A stretch of DNA of 64,000 bases from a virus: the IMG/VR virus record IMGVR_UViG_3300023170_000007, positions 116,376-180,375 of that record; one strand, given 5' to 3'. The stretch's first letter is position 1. Every line of letters begins with the position of its first letter. The notes below the pieces were generated by a model. That model was not told where the DNA came from and made no database searches. It saw only the letters and a list, made by a program, of their open reading frames with translations. The translations under genes were made by a program, and so were the position numbers. Below, one piece after another: positions 1-57,771 of the stretch.

Positions 1-144
1 TAAAGCTGATGGCAATCCCGAGCCAAGCCCGAAAGGGAAGGTGTAGAGACTTGACGGCCAGCCCTTAACAGGTAATGCTGAAGGTGAAGAGAAAGTCCAG
101 ACCACAAACAACTTCGGTTGGCAGTGAAAACTGTAGAGGGTAAG
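1..144 (+). ncRNA. group I intron (3' part) in tRNA-Leu
   Basis: A self-splicing group I intron is recognised from its core elements: Q-like AATCCCGAGCCAAG at 15-28, R-like GTGTAGAGACTTGACGG at 41-57 and S-like AAGTCC near 93-98. P7 pairs ACTT (49-52) with AAGT (93-96). A P6 hairpin CCC-GAAA-GGG has a GNRA loop, and a P9-region hairpin has a TTCG loop. The intron ends in G (144), as the terminal guanosine rule demands. There is no room for a homing endonuclease in the visible part. It is clearly related to the intron at 579-776. The 5' end is outside the window. Confidence 0.87.
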
Positions 145-196
145 AAAATCTCCCGGTCACATGACCTTGCGGGTTCGAGTCCCGCTTCAGCTACCA
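145..196 (+). tRNA. tRNA-Leu(UAA), 3' exon only (gene runs off the left edge)
   Basis: The 52 bases form the 3' half of a class II tRNA. They begin with AAAATCTCCC (end of the anticodon loop and 3' anticodon strand), then a variable-arm hairpin GGTCA-CA-TGACC, a T arm GCGGG-TTCGAGT-CCCGC, the 3' acceptor strand TTCAGCT, discriminator A and an encoded CCA. A loop ending in AAAA, with a group I intron ending directly before it, matches the classic intron position in tRNA-Leu(UAA), between bases 34 and 35. The 5' exon lies outside the window, so the UAA anticodon is inferred. Confidence 0.85.
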
Positions 197-352: not shown

Positions 353-427
353 TGGGGAGTAACTCAGTGGTAGAGTGCGCGGCTGTTAACCGCTCGGTCG
401 TGGGTTCGAATCCCACCTTCCCAGCCA
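353..427 (+). tRNA. tRNA-Asn(GUU)
   Basis: Cloverleaf: acceptor TGGGGAG/CTTCCCA with discriminator G and encoded CCA; D arm around ACTC-GAGT; anticodon loop CTGTTAA with anticodon GTT; T arm GTGGG-TTCGAAT-CCCAC. The encoded CCA is shared by every tRNA in this array. It is six bases upstream of tRNA-Glu, so the two are probably co-transcribed. Confidence 0.93.
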
Positions 428-433
428 TCTTTC

Positions 434-508
434 GCTCCCATAGTTTAACGGTAAGAATTCGGCGTTTTCACCGCTGCGGTAGGGGTTCGATTCCCCTTGG
501 GAGTACCA
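434..508 (+). tRNA. tRNA-Glu(UUC)
   Basis: Acceptor GCTCCCA pairs with TGGGAGT, followed by A and an encoded CCA. The anticodon stem CGGCG/CGCTG closes the loop TTTTCAC, giving anticodon TTC. The T arm is AGGGG-TTCGATT-CCCCT. The D arm AGTTTAACGGTAAGAATT is slightly irregular but typical of phage tRNAs. Confidence 0.9.
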
Positions 509-543: not shown

Positions 544-817
544 GGGCCTATAGCTCAACAGGTAGAGCATCGGACTTTCAATGGGAGCTTCATCAGGTAA
601 CTGATGTCGAATAACTGCTCAAATTCGGGGAACTCTTAACAGGTAATGCTGATGACAATCCCGAGCCAAGCTTCGAAAGAAGAAGGTGTAGAGACTAGAC
701 GGGCAGCACCCCACGTGGGTGAAGGGATAGTCCAGACCACAAACACTTCGGTGGTAGCGAAAGCTATAGTGGTACGTAATCCGCAGGTTCAGGGTTCGAG
801 TCCCTGTGGGCCCACCA
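544..817 (+). tRNA. tRNA-Lys(UUU) interrupted by a group I intron
   Basis: Exons 544-578 and 777-817 join to a 76-base tRNA with an encoded CCA: acceptor GGGCCTA/TGGGCCC, D arm GCTC...GAGC, anticodon stem around a 7-base loop CTTTTAA (anticodon TTT), T arm CAGGG-TTCGAGT-CCCTG. The exact 76-base length and the complete 7-base loop after removing 198 bases fix the splice sites: after T578, and after G776, the terminal guanosine. One mismatch remains at the top of the anticodon stem. Without splicing, no functional tRNA can form. Confidence 0.9.
579..776 (+). ncRNA. group I self-splicing intron in the tRNA-Lys anticodon loop
   Basis: A 198-base ribozyme without an ORF. A P2 hairpin CATCAG-GTAA-CTGATG has a GNRA loop, the P element is near 621-632, Q AATCCCGAGCCAAG at 657-670, R GTGTAGAGACTAGACGG at 686-702 and S GGGATAGTCC at 724-733. 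P7 pairs ACTA (694-697) with TAGT (728-731). In the tRNA-Leu intron the same positions are ACTT and AAGT, a compensatory change. P6 is CTTC-GAAA-GAAG, and the 3' domain carries CAC-TTCG-GTG and AGC-GAAA-GCT hairpins. It resembles the small introns of bacterial tRNA-Leu, tRNA-Arg and tRNA-Ile genes. Confidence 0.92.
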
Positions 818-839: not shown

Positions 840-1031
840 ATGTTAGTTACAAGACTGTCAGCGCCTTCGCCGGGTATGCCAGATTACTTTGAACTGTACT
901 CTAAGTGGTGGGCTGTAGCTGTTCGCACTGGAGAAAATCATGCGCTACAGGAAGCTCATCGCTTTGCGAGACTAGCTGAAGAGTTCGGTCAAGCGATTAT
1001 TCATGATGACGAAACACAAGAAGATTTTTAG
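840..1031 (+). CDS. small protein of unknown function
   Basis: 63 residues with an AAGGAA ribosome-binding site ten bases before the ATG. The stop codon overlaps the first base of tRNA-Leu(CAA). The sequence is acidic and probably helical, rich in Glu, Ala and Trp (motif YSKWWAVAVRTGENHALQEA). No family is recognised. Position inside the tRNA array suggests co-transcription with tRNAs; a spurious frame cannot be fully excluded. Confidence 0.6.
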   Translation: MLVTRLSAPSPGMPDYFELYSKWWAVAVRTGENHALQEAHRFARLAEEFGQAIIHDDETQEDF

Positions 1032-1116
1032 CCTGAGTGATGGAATGGTAGACATGAAGCACTCAAAATGCTTTGCTCTTAAGAGCGTGTGAGTTCGAAT
1101 CTCACCTCAGGCACCA
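1031..1116 (+). tRNA. tRNA-Leu(CAA)
   Basis: Class II tRNA: acceptor GCCTGAG/CTCAGGC, discriminator A, encoded CCA. Anticodon stem AAGCA/TGCTT closes loop CTCAAAA, giving CAA. The long variable arm TGCTC-TTAA-GAGCG identifies the Leu type, and the T arm is TGTGAG-TTCGAAT-CTCACC. No intron. Confidence 0.92.
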
Positions 1117-1134
1117 GTTTATTTTTTATTTTGT

Positions 1135-1210
1135 TGGGGTATGGCGCAATAGGTAGCGCAGCGGCCTTTGACTCCGCAGGTTCTAGGTTCGAGTCCTAGT
1201 GCCCCAGCCA
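1135..1210 (+). tRNA. tRNA-Gln(UUG)
   Basis: Acceptor TGGGGTA/TGCCCCA with G discriminator and encoded CCA. The loop CTTTGAC gives anticodon TTG. The T arm is CTAGG-TTCGAGT-CCTAG and the D arm GCGC...GCGC. One mismatch closes the anticodon loop. Confidence 0.92.
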
Positions 1211-1231
1211 GTTTCTATAAGAGAGTGTGAT

Positions 1232-1366
1232 ATGGATACAGCAACTTTCATTCTAGGTCTTGGTGTAATTATTATAGGAGTTTTGTCCCTGATCGTGGTC
1301 AAGCTGCCTAAGTTCCCAGGACCGCCCACCGACGTAGAAGATGAAGATCCAGGACGTGAAGTATGA
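1232..1366 (+). CDS. 44-residue single-pass membrane protein
   Basis: A very short gene: MDTATFILGLGVIIIGVLSL is one transmembrane helix, followed by VVK and an acidic Pro-rich tail. AGAGAG precedes the ATG. Its stop overlaps the next start by four bases (ATGA), which supports it as a real, translationally coupled gene. Function unknown. Confidence 0.55.
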   Translation: MDTATFILGLGVIIIGVLSLIVVKLPKFPGPPTDVEDEDPGREV

Positions 1367-1452
1367 AGTTTCGACCTGAACTTCCTGACGTTTTTGGCTT
1401 TTTTGTTATCATTCTTTACGCTGTTTTTATTGTGAAGCTTTTTTGTGGTTAG
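1363..1452 (+). CDS. 29-residue membrane peptide
   Basis: Starts in the ATGA overlap with the preceding gene. MKFRPELPDVFGFFVIILYA, then VFIVKLFCG: a short polar head and one hydrophobic helix. Together with the upstream gene it looks like a pair of tiny membrane proteins between tRNAs. Function unknown. Confidence 0.45.
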   Translation: MKFRPELPDVFGFFVIILYAVFIVKLFCG

Positions 1453-1720
1453 CGCGGTGTAAATGATCTTGGGGTTTCCTATAATCCTATAGATAGATTA
1501 AAGGATAGAAAAAACTGATGAACAAAAGTGTTTAATACCTTCTTATCGGGGGTAGGCTTCAGAAGCTTAGGGTCCTGCGGTTTCTGGTGACATTCGGGAA
1601 GCTTTTTGCTGTGTATGTGAAACATGTCAAGGCCCCTTGGCATGAAGTAACTTTGGAAAAGTTGTTCTTTTGCGTTTAAATGAAGAAGGTTATGCCTTCC
1701 CGATTCTACCCCCACTTTTT
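1453..1720. other. spacer before tRNA-Thr
   Basis: 268 bases without a convincing gene. A TATAAT at about 1482 (context TTTCCTATAATCCTATAG) is a plausible -10 box and could start a transcript through tRNA-Thr. The rest could hide a small RNA, but I see no recognisable fold. Confidence 0.4.
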
Positions 1721-1796
1721 GCCGCCGTAGCTCAGTTGGTAGAGCCATCGATTTGTAATCGATCTGTCGGAGGTTCGAGTCCTCTCGGCGGCTCCA
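1721..1796 (+). tRNA. tRNA-Thr(UGU)
   Basis: Acceptor GCCGCCG/CGGCGGC, discriminator T, CCA encoded. D arm GCTC...GAGC. Anticodon stem ATCGA/TCGAT with loop TTTGTAA (anticodon TGT). T arm GGAGG-TTCGAGT-CCTCT. The structure is nearly perfect, and this is the last tRNA of the array. Confidence 0.95.
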
Positions 1797-2950: not shown

Positions 2951-4423
2951 ATGATGCATTATAACACAGACTCAAAAATTCTCGCTGAGATATCAGTGAA
3001 TAAGGGGGAGAGCGTAAAGCTAAAGACAGGTGCTATCTGTACTGAGACTGGCACCTACAAGGGTCGAGCTCCTTCTGCTAAATCTTACGCTATAGATGAG
3101 ATTACGAGGGACAAAATTGACTGGTCTGCCAATAGAGGGATATCAGAAGATGAATTCGCGGAAGAGCTTTCTGCGTTCCAAGATTATAAGGGTACAATAG
3201 TTCCCTTATTTTGTCAAGAGCTGCAAGCGGTTAGAGATACAGGTCATAGAACTGACATTGTCGTTTTTACGGAAATGGCTCACCACGCATTGTTCGCCAG
3301 GAACATGTTCATTACGGATGTCGTGGGATTCGGGAAAACACAGCAGCCATGGCGGATTTATCACTTCCCAAAAAAAGAGGAAGAAGCTAAAGTACTAATA
3401 TCTTTCAAGAAGAAAGCGATTCTGATCACTGGGACATTTTATTCGGGAGAGATCAAGAAGAGTATTTTTTCGGTACTAAATTTCGAGTTTCCTCAATCTG
3501 GCCACTTGCCGATGCATTGCTCAGTGAATGTAGACAAAGAGCGAAGGAACCCTGCTGTTTTCTTCGGTCTGTCAGGAACAGGAAAGACAACTCTTTCTTC
3601 TGACGAAAATCGCATTTTGATCGGTGACGACGAGCATGGGTGGACCGATAGCGGCTTGACTAATTTCGAAGGCGGTTGCTATGCGAAGACGATTCGACTA
3701 TCTAAAGAAGCTGAACCCCAGATCTGGGATGCGTGCAATAAGCCTGGAACAATATTGGAGAATGTTGCCTTTAATGAAGACCTGATGCCGGATTTTGATG
3801 ACGGCACTCTTACCGAGAACAGCAGAGCTTCATACGCATGTTCTAGTGTTCCCGGCGCTGATCATAAAGGGTATGTCAATGAACACCCTGAGAACGTTAT
3901 CATGCTTACCTGTGACGCATTTGGTGTGCTACCTCCAGTGATGAAACTGTCACCTGACGAGGCTGTTACACAATTTTTGCTTGGTTATACCGCGAAAGTA
4001 GCCGGTACTGAAGCTGGTGTCGTAGAACCGCAAGCAACATTCTCTGCATGCTTTGGCGCTCCCTTCATGCCTCTGCACCCTCGAGAGTATGCTGCTATCT
4101 TAAGGGAAAAGTTGGTAAAACACGACACCTCGTGTTGGCTGGTGAATACTGGCTGGACAGGAGGCTCTTACGGAGTGGGAAGAAGAATGCCGATATCTAC
4201 TACGAGAGAGATTATCCAGAAGATTCATACCGGTGAGTTACGAGACTGCGCTACATTCGTTCATGAACCAACAGGCTTTACAGTACCGGACTGCGATAGT
4301 ATTGAAGAAACAATTCTTTACCCAGAAAAGGGCTGGAGCTCTAGAGAAGATTATGATTCCAAGTCTGCTGAGCTAATGTCTTTGTTCCGGGAACAGATGA
4401 AAAACATTGGGATCTCTAGTTAA
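2951..4423 (+). CDS. pckA: phosphoenolpyruvate carboxykinase (ATP)
   Basis: 490 residues, matching the ATP-dependent PEPCK family along its whole length except for a shorter N-terminus (bacterial enzymes about 520-540). It has the P-loop FFGLSGTGKTTLSSDE (about 203-218), kinase-2 motif LIGDDEHGW (about 223-231), the metal/oxaloacetate region NFEGGCYAKTIRLS, DAFGVLPPV, FSACFGAPF and LVNTGWTGG. It interconverts oxaloacetate + ATP and PEP + ADP + CO2. Key residues look intact, so an active enzyme is expected. I know of no common phage pckA; a role in redirecting host carbon during infection is inference. It follows the deaminase after 24 bases. Confidence 0.95.
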   Translation: MMHYNTDSKILAEISVNKGESVKLKTGAICTETGTYKGRAPSAKSYAIDEITRDKIDWSANRGISEDEFAEELSAFQDYKGTIVPLFCQELQAVRDTGHRTDIVVFTEMAHHALFARNMFITDVVGFGKTQQPWRIYHFPKKEEEAKVLISFKKKAILITGTFYSGEIKKSIFSVLNFEFPQSGHLPMHCSVNVDKERRNPAVFFGLSGTGKTTLSSDENRILIGDDEHGWTDSGLTNFEGGCYAKTIRLSKEAEPQIWDACNKPGTILENVAFNEDLMPDFDDGTLTENSRASYACSSVPGADHKGYVNEHPENVIMLTCDAFGVLPPVMKLSPDEAVTQFLLGYTAKVAGTEAGVVEPQATFSACFGAPFMPLHPREYAAILREKLVKHDTSCWLVNTGWTGGSYGVGRRMPISTTREIIQKIHTGELRDCATFVHEPTGFTVPDCDSIEETILYPEKGWSSREDYDSKSAELMSLFREQMKNIGISS

Positions 4424-37812: not shown

Positions 37813-38124
37813 ATGTCACAGGACACTATCTGGTGGGTTTATGTTGTAGAATGCAGTGATAATAGTCTCTACACAGGGACGACCACAGATGTACAACGGA
37901 GGGTAAAAGAACACAACTCTCGAAGCCAGGGAGCAAAGTACACACGTTCTAGACGCCCGGTGAGGCTGAAAGTCTGTTTTCCTTGTGCTGATAGATCACA
38001 AGCACTGAAGGAAGAGTATAAGTTCAAGCAGCTCTCTAGAGAAAAGAAACTCCGATTTATTGAAGAGTACTGTGGCACGTGCCGACAGATGCCGTGTGAC
38101 TGTAACGTTATGTTTGGGTTTTAA
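37813..38124 (+). CDS. GIY-YIG domain protein (UPF0213/YhbQ-like)
   Basis: 103 residues. WWVYVVECSDNSLYTGTTTD (GIY-YIG as VYV...LYTG), then RRVKEHN and KYTRSRRPVRL. Length and order match the small UPF0213/YhbQ GIY-YIG proteins. A C-terminal Cys cluster (CGTCRQMPCDC) could bind zinc. Nuclease activity is predicted but the YhbQ group's function is unclear; a free-standing homing nuclease is an alternative. Confidence 0.85.
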   Translation: MSQDTIWWVYVVECSDNSLYTGTTTDVQRRVKEHNSRSQGAKYTRSRRPVRLKVCFPCADRSQALKEEYKFKQLSREKKLRFIEEYCGTCRQMPCDCNVMFGF

Positions 38125-55662: not shown

Positions 55663-57771
55663 ATGACCAACAGAAGACTAGCAGCTTCATTTTTCTTTCT
55701 TGCTGCTATCGGGTGCTCAGAAGATCAAGTCTCTCAGATGACCGTCGACTCTGGTGTAAGGACTATCACTCAAGATGACAGCAGTGCTGCAGATGTAATG
55801 ATAGTCACAGTTCAAGACGCCTCTATAGATATGTTCATTGATCCATGTCTCGACATCCAGAACACCGATGATATGTACTGTGAGTGTCACCCCAGATGCT
55901 GTCAAAATCAAACATGGTACTGCCCTCCTAGAGGTACTGAAGTTTTGGCAAAAGATGCTGTCTTAGACATCTGCGATACTGACTATGTACCGTGTGATAG
56001 AAACATTGATGAATCATGTCCTCCGGCAGAAATTATCTACGAAAGTTCTTGTAACCATATGTTTGACTGTCCACCGGGCATAGACGAAGACTTTACAGTT
56101 TTCTATGATTGTGAGGTGGATGGTAACCCGGGCACTCAGAGGGTGCGTTGTGACAAGGGAAGGTTAGACTATGGACAGTGCGTCGTTTGTGTCTTGGCGG
56201 ACGAGATCTGTGACGGCCAAGATAATGACTGCGATGGCGAAATAGACGAACACCAATTGAATGAATGTGGTCAATGTGGATTGTTACCCCAAGATGCTTG
56301 TGATGGGCTCGATAACGACTGCGATGGTCTTGTTGATGAAGATCTGGTTCAAGCATGTGTCACTACATGTGAGCGTGGTGTAGAGGTTTGTGAAAACGGA
56401 GCCTGGGTGGGTTGTACAGCAAGACAGCCATCCGAAGAAATCTGCGACGGCTTCGATAATGACTGCGACGGTTTGATTGATGAAGAGCTTAATTGCGGAT
56501 GCCCACCTGAGATGGTCGGCGCGTTGCTACCCTGTATGGAACCACCACTAACTTGTGGGATGGGATTCAAGACGTGCGAGTGTGAAGATGAAGACTGCTT
56601 GACAACTCGAATGTCTGACTGCTTCGCTTTGTGCGCTTGGTTACCGGCAGAGATAGTCCAGCATGATGAGCCAGACACTTGTGACAGATACGCAGGAATG
56701 CCTGTTAATCCAGAAGTTTGTAATAACTTCGACGAAGACTGTGACGGTTTAATCGATGAGAGACTAAACAAGCCTTGCTATTCTGGTCCTCAAGATACTA
56801 TAGGGGTAGGTGTGTGTCGAGGTGGTAGTCAAGTCTGCGAACAAGGTCGCTGGTACGGAGAAACAACAGCCGGCAGTTTTGTTCACGATTTTTGTGCAGG
56901 TGAGATCGTACCCAGCAGAGAGATTTGCGACGGTAGTGATAATGACTGCGATGGTGTTACCGACTTTGGTCGAGAGATTCCAGACACAGACATTCTTTTC
57001 ATTCTTGATTGGTCTGGATCTATGGCATACCAGATCAACGCTGTAAAGATGGCGATGAATAGATTTGCAAACCATTTCGCTGCAGAGGGTAAGTTAAAAT
57101 GGGGATTAATAACCGGACCTCGGATTTTTCCAAGAGAAGGTCAAGATCCTTCACAGGCTAAACAATACCTGAGGTTAGAAACTGACATAACATCATTCTC
57201 AGATTTTATCGCTGCATTCTCTGCAGCTGGTGCTTTTGAGACTGGAGCAACCCATGAAATGTTAATTGACGCGCTGCTGCTTTCTGTCGCGACTATTTCA
57301 TCTAACATGACTTATGACCTGTCAACCGCACAGTGGTTCAATGGTTTCTCTGACGCCGGATCGATTCCGAGTCTACAAGACTTTCGAATAAACTGGCGAC
57401 ATAACGCTGACAGGGTTATCGTAGTGTTTACAGACGAGGAGGATCAGTCTTTCCTCGTACCGAAAGTGACTAGCGAACAAGCTATAGCAGCCCTCGAGGG
57501 ATCACCAGATACTACACTTTATGTGTTCACACAAAGATACTTTTTTTCGAGGTGGGACGATTATGTAGACCCGACAGGTGGAAGACTGTTCCCATTATCT
57601 TCTAACTCTGAGCAGATGTATGATGATCTCATGTCTATACTCGATGAGATCTGCCTTAACGCAGGCTCTTCTGTACAGATGGAAGAAGCTTCGTATAATG
57701 GTAATATGTCAAGCCAGCTATACAATCCAGTGATTTCAAGATATAATTTTTCTGGTGGCTATTGCTACTAA
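55663..57771 (+). CDS. lipoprotein with MopE-type Cys repeats and a von Willebrand A domain
   Basis: 702 residues. Lipobox signal LAASFFFLAAIGCSED (Cys near 20). A Cys-rich region follows. Five CDGxDNDCDGxxDE-type repeats (EICDGQDNDCDGEIDE, DACDGLDNDCDGLVDE, EICDGFDNDCDGLIDE, a variant with NNFDED, and EICDGSDNDCDGVTDF) span about 185-435; this metal/Cys-rich repeat is abundant in Myxococcota. A vWA domain follows with MIDAS DILFILDWSGSMAYQ (near 446) and VVFTDEEDQSFL, which also occurs in the 32720-33682 product. A large surface-exposed host-envelope protein is predicted. The pilin-like gene follows after 10 bases. Confidence 0.9.
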   Translation: MTNRRLAASFFFLAAIGCSEDQVSQMTVDSGVRTITQDDSSAADVMIVTVQDASIDMFIDPCLDIQNTDDMYCECHPRCCQNQTWYCPPRGTEVLAKDAVLDICDTDYVPCDRNIDESCPPAEIIYESSCNHMFDCPPGIDEDFTVFYDCEVDGNPGTQRVRCDKGRLDYGQCVVCVLADEICDGQDNDCDGEIDEHQLNECGQCGLLPQDACDGLDNDCDGLVDEDLVQACVTTCERGVEVCENGAWVGCTARQPSEEICDGFDNDCDGLIDEELNCGCPPEMVGALLPCMEPPLTCGMGFKTCECEDEDCLTTRMSDCFALCAWLPAEIVQHDEPDTCDRYAGMPVNPEVCNNFDEDCDGLIDERLNKPCYSGPQDTIGVGVCRGGSQVCEQGRWYGETTAGSFVHDFCAGEIVPSREICDGSDNDCDGVTDFGREIPDTDILFILDWSGSMAYQINAVKMAMNRFANHFAAEGKLKWGLITGPRIFPREGQDPSQAKQYLRLETDITSFSDFIAAFSAAGAFETGATHEMLIDALLLSVATISSNMTYDLSTAQWFNGFSDAGSIPSLQDFRINWRHNADRVIVVFTDEEDQSFLVPKVTSEQAIAALEGSPDTTLYVFTQRYFFSRWDDYVDPTGGRLFPLSSNSEQMYDDLMSILDEICLNAGSSVQMEEASYNGNMSSQLYNPVISRYNFSGGYCY

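What the first reader, a model, noticed from the sequence alone, without database searches (positions are those of the whole stretch)
544..817. Group I intron inside the anticodon loop of a phage tRNA-Lys(UUU)
Removing 198 bases leaves an exact 76-base tRNA with a 7-base loop CTTTTAA. The insert has P, Q, R, S elements and GNRA/UUCG-capped stems and no ORF. Group I introns in tRNA genes are known from bacteria and plastids (Leu-UAA, Arg, Ile), but I know of no common case in phage tRNA-Lys.
Basis: partly seen in the sequence, partly recalled or inferred. Interest (0 to 1): 0.85.

Follow-up and report, generated by a model that had tools for sequence, protein, structure and literature searches.

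The report
Self-splicing introns in phage tRNA genes
A large T4-like phage carries three related self-splicing (group I) introns inside the anticodon loops of neighbouring tRNA genes for lysine, leucine and arginine, a kind of gene in which a 2014 review said no phage intron had been seen.

Summary
Window 544-817 is a tRNA-Lys(UUU) gene split by a 198-nt insert (579-776). A covariance model built from 44 other tRNA introns, none from this phage, scores the insert at 178.8 bits (E 9.6e-48). Rfam RF00028 gives 49.2 bits, just under its curated 50. The group I core covaries strongly. Six viral contigs hold an uninterrupted tRNA-Lys gene 92% identical to the spliced product.

A near-identical 280,913-bp record gives the same three and no other.

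Phage tRNA introns are not rare. Genome contigs of bacteria also show introns at the same tRNA-Lys site.

The ribozyme is an ordinary tRNA-type group I intron. The gene class is new for phages in the text I could search. Splicing is inferred, not shown; the origin of this copy is unresolved.

The parts
544..578 (+). 5' exon of tRNA-Lys(UUU), nt 1-35, ending C32-U33-U34-U35
579..776 (+). 198-nt group I intron, ending in the terminal G (776)
   Evidence: RF00028 49.2 bits; held-out model R1 178.8 bits, E 9.6e-48; covariation
777..817 (+). 3' exon of tRNA-Lys(UUU), from nt 36 to the CCA end
575..587 (+). P1: C575-U578 with G584-G587, U578-G584 wobble at the splice site
   Evidence: 4 contiguous pairs
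582..778 (+). P10: U777-G583 and A778-U582 (2 pairs)
591..606 (+). P2 hairpin with GUAA loop
   Evidence: 6 of 6 pairs change on both sides, 88.1% of cells paired
615..706 (+). P3: 615-620 with 701-706
   Evidence: 6 of 6 pairs change on both sides, 100% of cells paired
624..665 (+). P4 (624-629 with 660-665) and P5 (634-635 with 654-655); P and Q stretches
   Evidence: 97.2% and 100% of cells paired; the inner P5 pairs 640-642/649-651 only 52%
666..686 (+). P6 (666-667 with 685-686) and P6a (671-674 with 679-682) with GAAA loop
   Evidence: 98.3% and 92.5% of cells paired
693..732 (+). P7 pseudoknot: 693-697 with 728-732; R and S stretches
   Evidence: 100% of cells paired; one pair of five varies, on both sides in 15 of 30 rows
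707..721 (+). P8 hairpin
   Evidence: four outer pairs 97.5%, last pair 60.7% of cells paired
737..772 (+). P9 three-way junction with UUCG and GAAA hairpins
   Evidence: 97.5%, 83.1% and 100% of cells paired
1..144 (+). 3' part of the second group I intron (237 nt, begins upstream of the window), in tRNA-Leu(UAA)
   Evidence: R1 111.1 bits, cut 5'; whole copy RF00028 70.2 bits; ARAGORN -i intron of 237
145..196 (+). 3' exon of tRNA-Leu(UAA)
353..508 (+). Uninterrupted tRNA-Asn(GUU) 353-427 and tRNA-Glu(UUC) 434-508 of the same cluster
1031..1796 (+). Uninterrupted tRNA-Leu(CAA) 1031-1116, tRNA-Gln(UUG) 1135-1210 and tRNA-Thr(UGU) 1721-1796

Best explanation
A small group I intron of the bacterial tRNA type, without an endonuclease gene, sits between anticodon positions 35 and 36 of a phage tRNA-Lys(UUU) gene. 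The pre-tRNA folds into the P1-P9 core. The intron's GGAG guide pairs with C32-U35 of the 5' exon, putting a U-G wobble at 578. Exogenous guanosine attacks there; the freed U then attacks after G776, aided by P10, so the tRNA is joined and the intron leaves. It has two sister introns, after U34 in tRNA-Arg(UCU) and tRNA-Leu(UAA) of the same cluster. Shown: sequence, structure by covariation, family membership, empty sites in other viruses. Inferred: the chemistry, splicing in infection, and that the copies persist as near-neutral elements that reach new tRNA genes through a short target (CUU or CUUU) shared by many anticodon loops, by recombination, reverse splicing or the endonucleases of longer relatives.
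For: Held-out model: Lys 178.8 bits E 9.6e-48, Arg 188.5, Leu 176.2; three hits and no other in G000 and in a near-identical 280,913-bp record. Structure on 30 rows: 94.4% of cells paired, covariation score 0.553 against 0.168 shuffled (0 of 500 as high) and at most 0.107 when slid; P3 6 of 6 pairs with changes on both sides. Guide follows anticodon: GAG in 47 of 47 UAA, 15 of 15 UCU and 12 of 12 UUU introns at site 34; GGAG or GAAG in 7 of 7 UUU at site 35; GCAG in 6 of 6 GUU. P10: mean 2.11 bp over 97 different introns (CAU ones left out) against 0.93 with 3' exons shuffled, maximum 1.34 of 500. Uninterrupted tRNA-Lys 92.1% identical over all 76 nt in 6 of 31 matching viral loci. RF00028 62.6 and 70.2 bits for the paralogues.
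Against: No RNA data. RF00028 for the Lys copy is 0.8 bits under the curated score. Minimum free energy no better than many shuffles (z -1.33, 19 of 200). P1 has two U-G pairs and only 4 contiguous pairs; P10 only 2 pairs. U27-C43 is unpaired in the spliced tRNA. The guide test picks the best-pairing site, so it is biased towards pairing, and its overall margin is small (3.73 pairs against 3.29 shuffled); one of 79 site-34 introns (L179, UUC) has GGGA, and 29 of 97 have 0 or 1 P10 pair. The structure was drawn on the window row, which favours it over slid versions. No sister phage with an empty tRNA-Lys at this very locus was found.
Confidence: 0.91

Rival explanations
1. The intron is a decayed relic that no longer splices, so the tRNA-Lys gene is a pseudogene and the host's tRNA-Lys serves the phage.
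For: P1 and P10 are short, tRNA pair 27-43 is broken, RF00028 score is borderline.
Against: All 50 drawn pairs, P3 and P7 among them, are standard pairs in this copy (it was the row they were drawn on); the exons form an exact 76-nt tRNA; bacterial tRNA-Lys introns at the same site have the same short P1, and 4 of 5 have the same ATG before the guide.
Confidence: 0.07
2. This intron came with its exons from a bacterial tRNA-Lys(UUU) gene that already had an intron at site 35/36, rather than by copying within the phage. (A rival on origin only; compatible with the best explanation of what it is.)
For: tRNA-Lys(UUU) introns at the same site exist in 5 genome contigs; 4 of these 5 read ATG-GGAG at the guide, like this intron.
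Against: Its best matches are the other two introns of the same phage (136 and 131 bits; next 121). Exons agree with those 5 genes at only 55-58 of 76 sites. The tree leaves it open: p-AU 0.171 for a clade with those 5 loci and L059, 0.237 for the three of this phage.
Confidence: 0.3
3. The two halves are chance tRNA-like pieces around an unrelated structured RNA, or an assembly artefact.
For: tRNA arrays are repetitive and assemblers err there.
Against: Random anchors gave a split tRNA at my threshold in 4 of 666 trials, against 46 of 123 at intron-core matches. Two other records hold all three introns, with 2-3 mismatches over 12,666 bp, and a third holds the Arg and Leu introns at 100% over 9,703 bp.
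Confidence: 0.01

Closest known systems
[quoted passage not shown] Leu, fMet and Ile named in passages)
   Same: Small ribozyme in an anticodon loop, U-G at the 5' splice site, terminal G, GNRA loops on P2 and P9 (their features recalled).
   Different: Here in a phage, in Lys(UUU) after nt 35, with two related copies in one tRNA cluster.
Group I introns of phages (T4 td/nrdB/nrdD, SPO1, Twort, Bastille; recalled and passages)
   Same: Self-splicing introns in tailed phages, some in T4-like phages.
   Different: Those are in protein genes; Hausner et al. 2014 (PMC3984707, passages seen) says all phage introns observed to date were in protein-coding genes.
tRNA-Lys(UUU) introns in genome contigs (Gluconobacter, Acetobacter, Brytella, Sphingomonas, an alphaproteobacterial MAG)
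   Same: Same tRNA, same site 35/36, guide GGAG or GAAG.
   Different: Tree does not group them with this intron with support.
Agrobacterium phage Atu_ph07 tRNA-Leu(UAA), Microcoleus phage tRNA-Arg(CCU), 735-kb phage LR756501 tRNA-Leu(UAA)
   Same: Phage tRNA genes split by introns that match model R1 at 139.5-207.6 bits.
   Different: Other tRNAs. Atu_ph07 has only protein genes annotated there, LR756501 no annotation at all, and the Microcoleus record labels the whole 286-nt stretch tRNA-Arg.

Membership tests
Group I intron (RF00028) | Covariance-model match | tested here: inconclusive
   49.2 bits against gathering score 50, E 5.3e-11; paralogues 62.6 and 70.2, above it
Group I intron (RF00028) | Conserved core P3-P8 with the P3/P7 pseudoknot | tested here: met
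   P3 and P7 100% of cells paired; P3 varies on both sides in 6 of 6 pairs; P7 varies in only 1 of 5, so it is supported mainly by conservation
Group I intron (RF00028) | U-G wobble at the 5' splice site and terminal G | tested here: met
   U578-G584 and G776; the scanner rewarded the U and required the G, so in the survey these are partly built in
Group I intron (RF00028) | Guanosine-dependent self-splicing | not testable with these tools
   needs an in vitro reaction
tRNA-type introns of bacteria, subgroup IC3 | Resembles tRNA introns more than phage protein-gene introns | tested here: inconclusive
   A model of tRNA introns alone scores it 178.8 bits; introns beside split reductase or RNA polymerase genes of phages score 26.5-47.7 (L504, L505, L507), but one before a helicase gene scores 100.4 (L503) and those in or beside capsid genes 98-167.5 (L500, L506), so the line is not sharp
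tRNA-type introns of bacteria, subgroup IC3 | Subgroup IC3 as such | not tested
   No subgroup models on hand; recalled from structure
Mobile intron with homing endonuclease | Endonuclease gene in the intron | tested here: not met
   No ORF of 60 aa or more wholly inside 579-776; a relative in LR756511 has one
Archaeal or eukaryotic enzyme-spliced tRNA intron | Canonical position 37/38 and no ribozyme core | tested here: not met
   Insert is after nt 35 and has a group I core; a bulge-helix-bulge was not searched for

The most novel reading that the evidence does not exclude
Phages carry their own roving population of tRNA introns. A minimal ribozyme that recognises only C32-U33-U34 (or one base more) can settle in many U34 or U35 tRNAs and retune its guide and P10 to the new anticodon, so introns hop between tRNA species inside phage tRNA arrays and pass to and from cells. 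Supporting: the guide and P10 follow the anticodon; lineages mix tRNA species, with 20 anticodon changes for 11 states on a weakly supported tree; one starred clade holds Arg, Leu and Ala introns. A further untested twist is that an uncut anticodon loop shields phage tRNA-Lys from anticodon nucleases such as PrrC until splicing.
Probability: 0.3. Interest if true: 0.75.

Novelty: new member of a known kind. Interest (0 to 1): 0.56.

Why it matters
A published review treats phage group I introns as confined to protein genes despite many phage tRNA genes (PMC3984707, passages). If these splice, that generalisation falls, phage tRNA counts made with standard tools are too low (ARAGORN without introns misses all three here; tRNAscan-SE is said not to be designed to detect such introns, PMC8450103, passage), and phages become candidates for moving tRNA introns between bacteria. 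Cultured phages with such genes make it testable.

Tried and rejected
Folding energy as evidence: z -1.33, dropped. RF00028 at its curated threshold: window copy missed; lax search found it. ARAGORN with introns calls the Lys gene tRNA-SeC(tca) with a 189-nt intron; rejected because a 198-nt intron ending in G leaves an exact tRNA-Lys. First tree (155 rows) put the Lys intron beside two long, probably mis-called rows; I dropped 27 loci by hand, among them bacterial and viral Lys introns on long branches, removed introns over 270 nt, thinned the CAU introns of genome contigs and rebuilt (80 rows): still unresolved. Orthologous empty locus in a relative: L487 and L490 encode relatives of flanking genes (71% and 56%), but R1 found no intron in them and ARAGORN no uninterrupted tRNA (one doubtful split tRNA-Leu call in L490). 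Klebsiella phage Muenster: R1 87.2 bits and by eye a split tRNA-Met(CAU), but ARAGORN did not call the spliced product; left as possible. Vibrio phage L509: no R1 match. HNH genes in long introns of L057, L100 and L122: tRNA or intron limits uncertain, not used. Some rows of the survey have doubtful registers (single AAG, CTA, TGT; sites 32 and 33).

Model R1 used 44 of 52 thinned introns (8 dropped: 6 CAU ones of genome contigs, L098, L168); alignment A3 used 30 rows: the 3 of this phage and 27 of those 52. Random anchors lie in the same loci, so some may fall near real introns.

Full report
What is there. Window 544-578 and 777-817 are the halves of a tRNA-Lys(UUU) gene; 579-776 is a 198-nt insert. 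Joined in silico the halves give 76 nt with loop CTTTTAA, called tRNA-Lys(ttt) by ARAGORN. The split lies after U35. ARAGORN without the intron option finds five tRNAs in the window and misses this one.

Is it a group I intron? RF00028 scores 568-752 at 49.2 bits, E 5.3e-11, against a gathering score of 50. A model built from 44 introns of other phages and of genome contigs, with none from this phage, scores 570-781 at 178.8 bits, E 9.6e-48. The hand-drawn structure (P2 to P9, P7 as pseudoknot, 50 pairs), counted on 30 rows, pairs in 94.4% of cells; 36 of 50 pairs change on both sides; covariation 0.553 against 0.168 when shuffled and at most 0.107 when slid by 1 to 3 columns. It was drawn on the window row, which favours it over the slid versions. 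The inner P5 pairs (52%) and the last P8 pair (61%) are poorly supported. P7 rests mostly on conservation. Folding energy alone gives z -1.33.

Splice sites. I paired the end of each 5' exon with the intron. The guide differs with the anticodon: GAG in 78 of 79 introns at site 34 (the exception is one UUC intron), GGAG or GAAG for Lys(UUU) at site 35 (7 of 7), GCAG for Asn(GUU) (6 of 6). Over all 161 introns the mean is 3.73 contiguous P1 pairs against 3.29 with exons shuffled (maximum 3.45 of 50). The 3' exon also pairs with the bases just before the guide (P10): mean 2.11 pairs over 97 different introns, against 0.93 with 3' exons shuffled and a maximum of 1.34 in 500; 29 of the 97 have 0 or 1 pair (CAU introns left out). 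The window intron has 4 P1 pairs and 2 P10 pairs.

Empty sites. A pattern for the uninterrupted tRNA-Lys matched 31 viral loci; in 6 of them the gene agrees with the spliced window gene at 92.1% over all 76 nt. These are other viruses, not the same locus.

Three introns, not one. The insert matches two more places in the same record: one in tRNA-Arg(UCU) (205 nt, after U34) and one in tRNA-Leu(UAA) (237 nt, after U34). The second runs into the window; its last 144 nt are window 1-144, and the Leu 3' exon is 145-196. R1 finds three in G000 and no other, and the same three in a 280,913-bp record that is 99.98% identical over the 12,666 bp compared. RF00028 gives 62.6 and 70.2 bits for the whole Arg and Leu copies.

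The host genome. G000 is a virus record of 180,375 bp with a T4-type portal (251.4 bits), a Gp23-type capsid protein (223.4 bits) and a terminase (62 bits), so a T4-like phage. Its bacterial host is unknown. It has a small GIY-YIG protein at window 37813-38124, far from the tRNA cluster; no HNH_3 match at E 0.001.

How common. At matches to a core pattern, 46 of 123 sites showed a split tRNA; random anchors in the same loci did so in 4 of 666 trials. A wider scan, checked by ARAGORN on spliced products, gave 157 intron-bearing tRNAs in the fetched loci; with four added from the earlier scan, 161: 97 in 93 phage or viral loci and 64 in 64 genome contigs. The 97 include five from this phage and its twin L176 and one from the named Microcoleus phage (L125). 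Types among the 97: Leu(UAA) 49, Arg(UCU) 13, CAU 10, Lys(UUU) 6, Asn(GUU) 6, Arg(CCU) 4, Glu 2, and seven single ones. Genome contigs, found with a pattern aimed at 3' exons that hold TAATC: CAU 44, Lys(UUU) 8 at site 34 and 5 at site 35, Arg(UCU) 4, Lys(CUU) 3.

Named phages. Agrobacterium phage Atu_ph07 has a tRNA-Leu(UAA) with a 278-nt intron and no tRNA annotated there; the 735-kb phage LR756501 has one of 205 nt; Microcoleus phage My-WqHQDG has a 286-nt stretch annotated tRNA-Arg that splits by a 213-nt intron. The 595-kb phage LR756511 has a tRNA-Leu(UAA) with a 700-nt intron overlapping a 189-aa ORF with an HNH match over Pfam's cut-off (26.3 against 21.4 bits). Of 12 phage regions that I opened, four split into a tRNA that ARAGORN accepts; six have the intron in or beside genes such as reductase, RNA polymerase, helicase and capsid; one is undecided (Klebsiella phage Muenster) and one has no R1 match (L509). 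I opened 12 of the records listed, not all.

Origin. The best matches of the Lys intron are its two sisters, but neither their being one clade (p-AU 0.237) nor a clade with the site-35 Lys introns of five genome contigs and L059 (p-AU 0.171) is rejected. Anticodon labels change 20 times for 11 states on the tree, against 43.5 when shuffled: introns mostly stay with a tRNA type but have moved between types. The tree is weakly supported, so this is suggestive.

Literature. Hausner et al. [quoted passage not shown] A paper on cyanobacterial tRNAs (PMC5733544, passages) claims group I introns of 22-49 nt in tRNA-Arg, Gly and Lys; that is far too short for the core seen here. The huge-phage papers PMC7162821 and PMC10747093 hold no word beginning with intron in their main text; the first used tRNAscan-SE 2.0. 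Three papers that name both group I introns and phage tRNA (PMC13096335, PMC1524935, PMC4177764; passages) put no intron in a phage tRNA gene in the passages shown. The searches showed me no report of a group I intron in a phage tRNA gene; several lists were cut (30 of 78, 40 of 142, 15 of 109, 5 of 326), I read titles, abstract starts and passages only, the library is open-access only, and no preprints are held.

Verdict. Real, ordinary in chemistry, unusual in place. High confidence that it is a group I intron in a phage tRNA-Lys; moderate to high that it splices; low on how it got there.

Noticed in passing
L502 609-1308 (phage LR756511): A tRNA-Leu(UAA) intron of 700 nt overlaps a 189-aa ORF (646-1215) with an HNH endonuclease match; R1 gives two partial-looking hits on either side (601-809 and 1097-1313).
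   Followed up: partly
L027, L062, L121, L139, L161, L166, L195, L210: Eight viral tRNAs with anticodon UAA, split by such introns, have a 5-nt variable region instead of the long arm expected of tRNA-Leu. Their amino-acid identity is unclear.
   Followed up: partly
window 37813-38124: Small GIY-YIG protein (103 aa, Pfam 58.2 bits), free-standing, far from the tRNA cluster.
   Followed up: partly
window 2951-4423: A phosphoenolpyruvate carboxykinase-like gene in a phage (DNA match to a gene so annotated; no PHROG); a relative at 56% identity lies in another viral contig.
   Followed up: no
window 55663-57771: 702-aa protein with repeated cysteine-rich CDGxDNDCDG motifs, recalled as common in Myxococcota, a possible hint at the host.
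   Followed up: no
L500 1149-1358 and L506 1125-1298, 1839-2007: Introns close to the tRNA type in or beside capsid genes of two marine phages (R1 98-167.5 bits): tRNA-like introns also live in protein genes.
   Followed up: no
genome contigs L330, L351, L345, L354, L390: tRNA-Lys introns of a longer, clearly different type (Microbacterium, Agromyces, Planctomycetes, Chloroflexi), on a long branch of the first tree.
   Followed up: no
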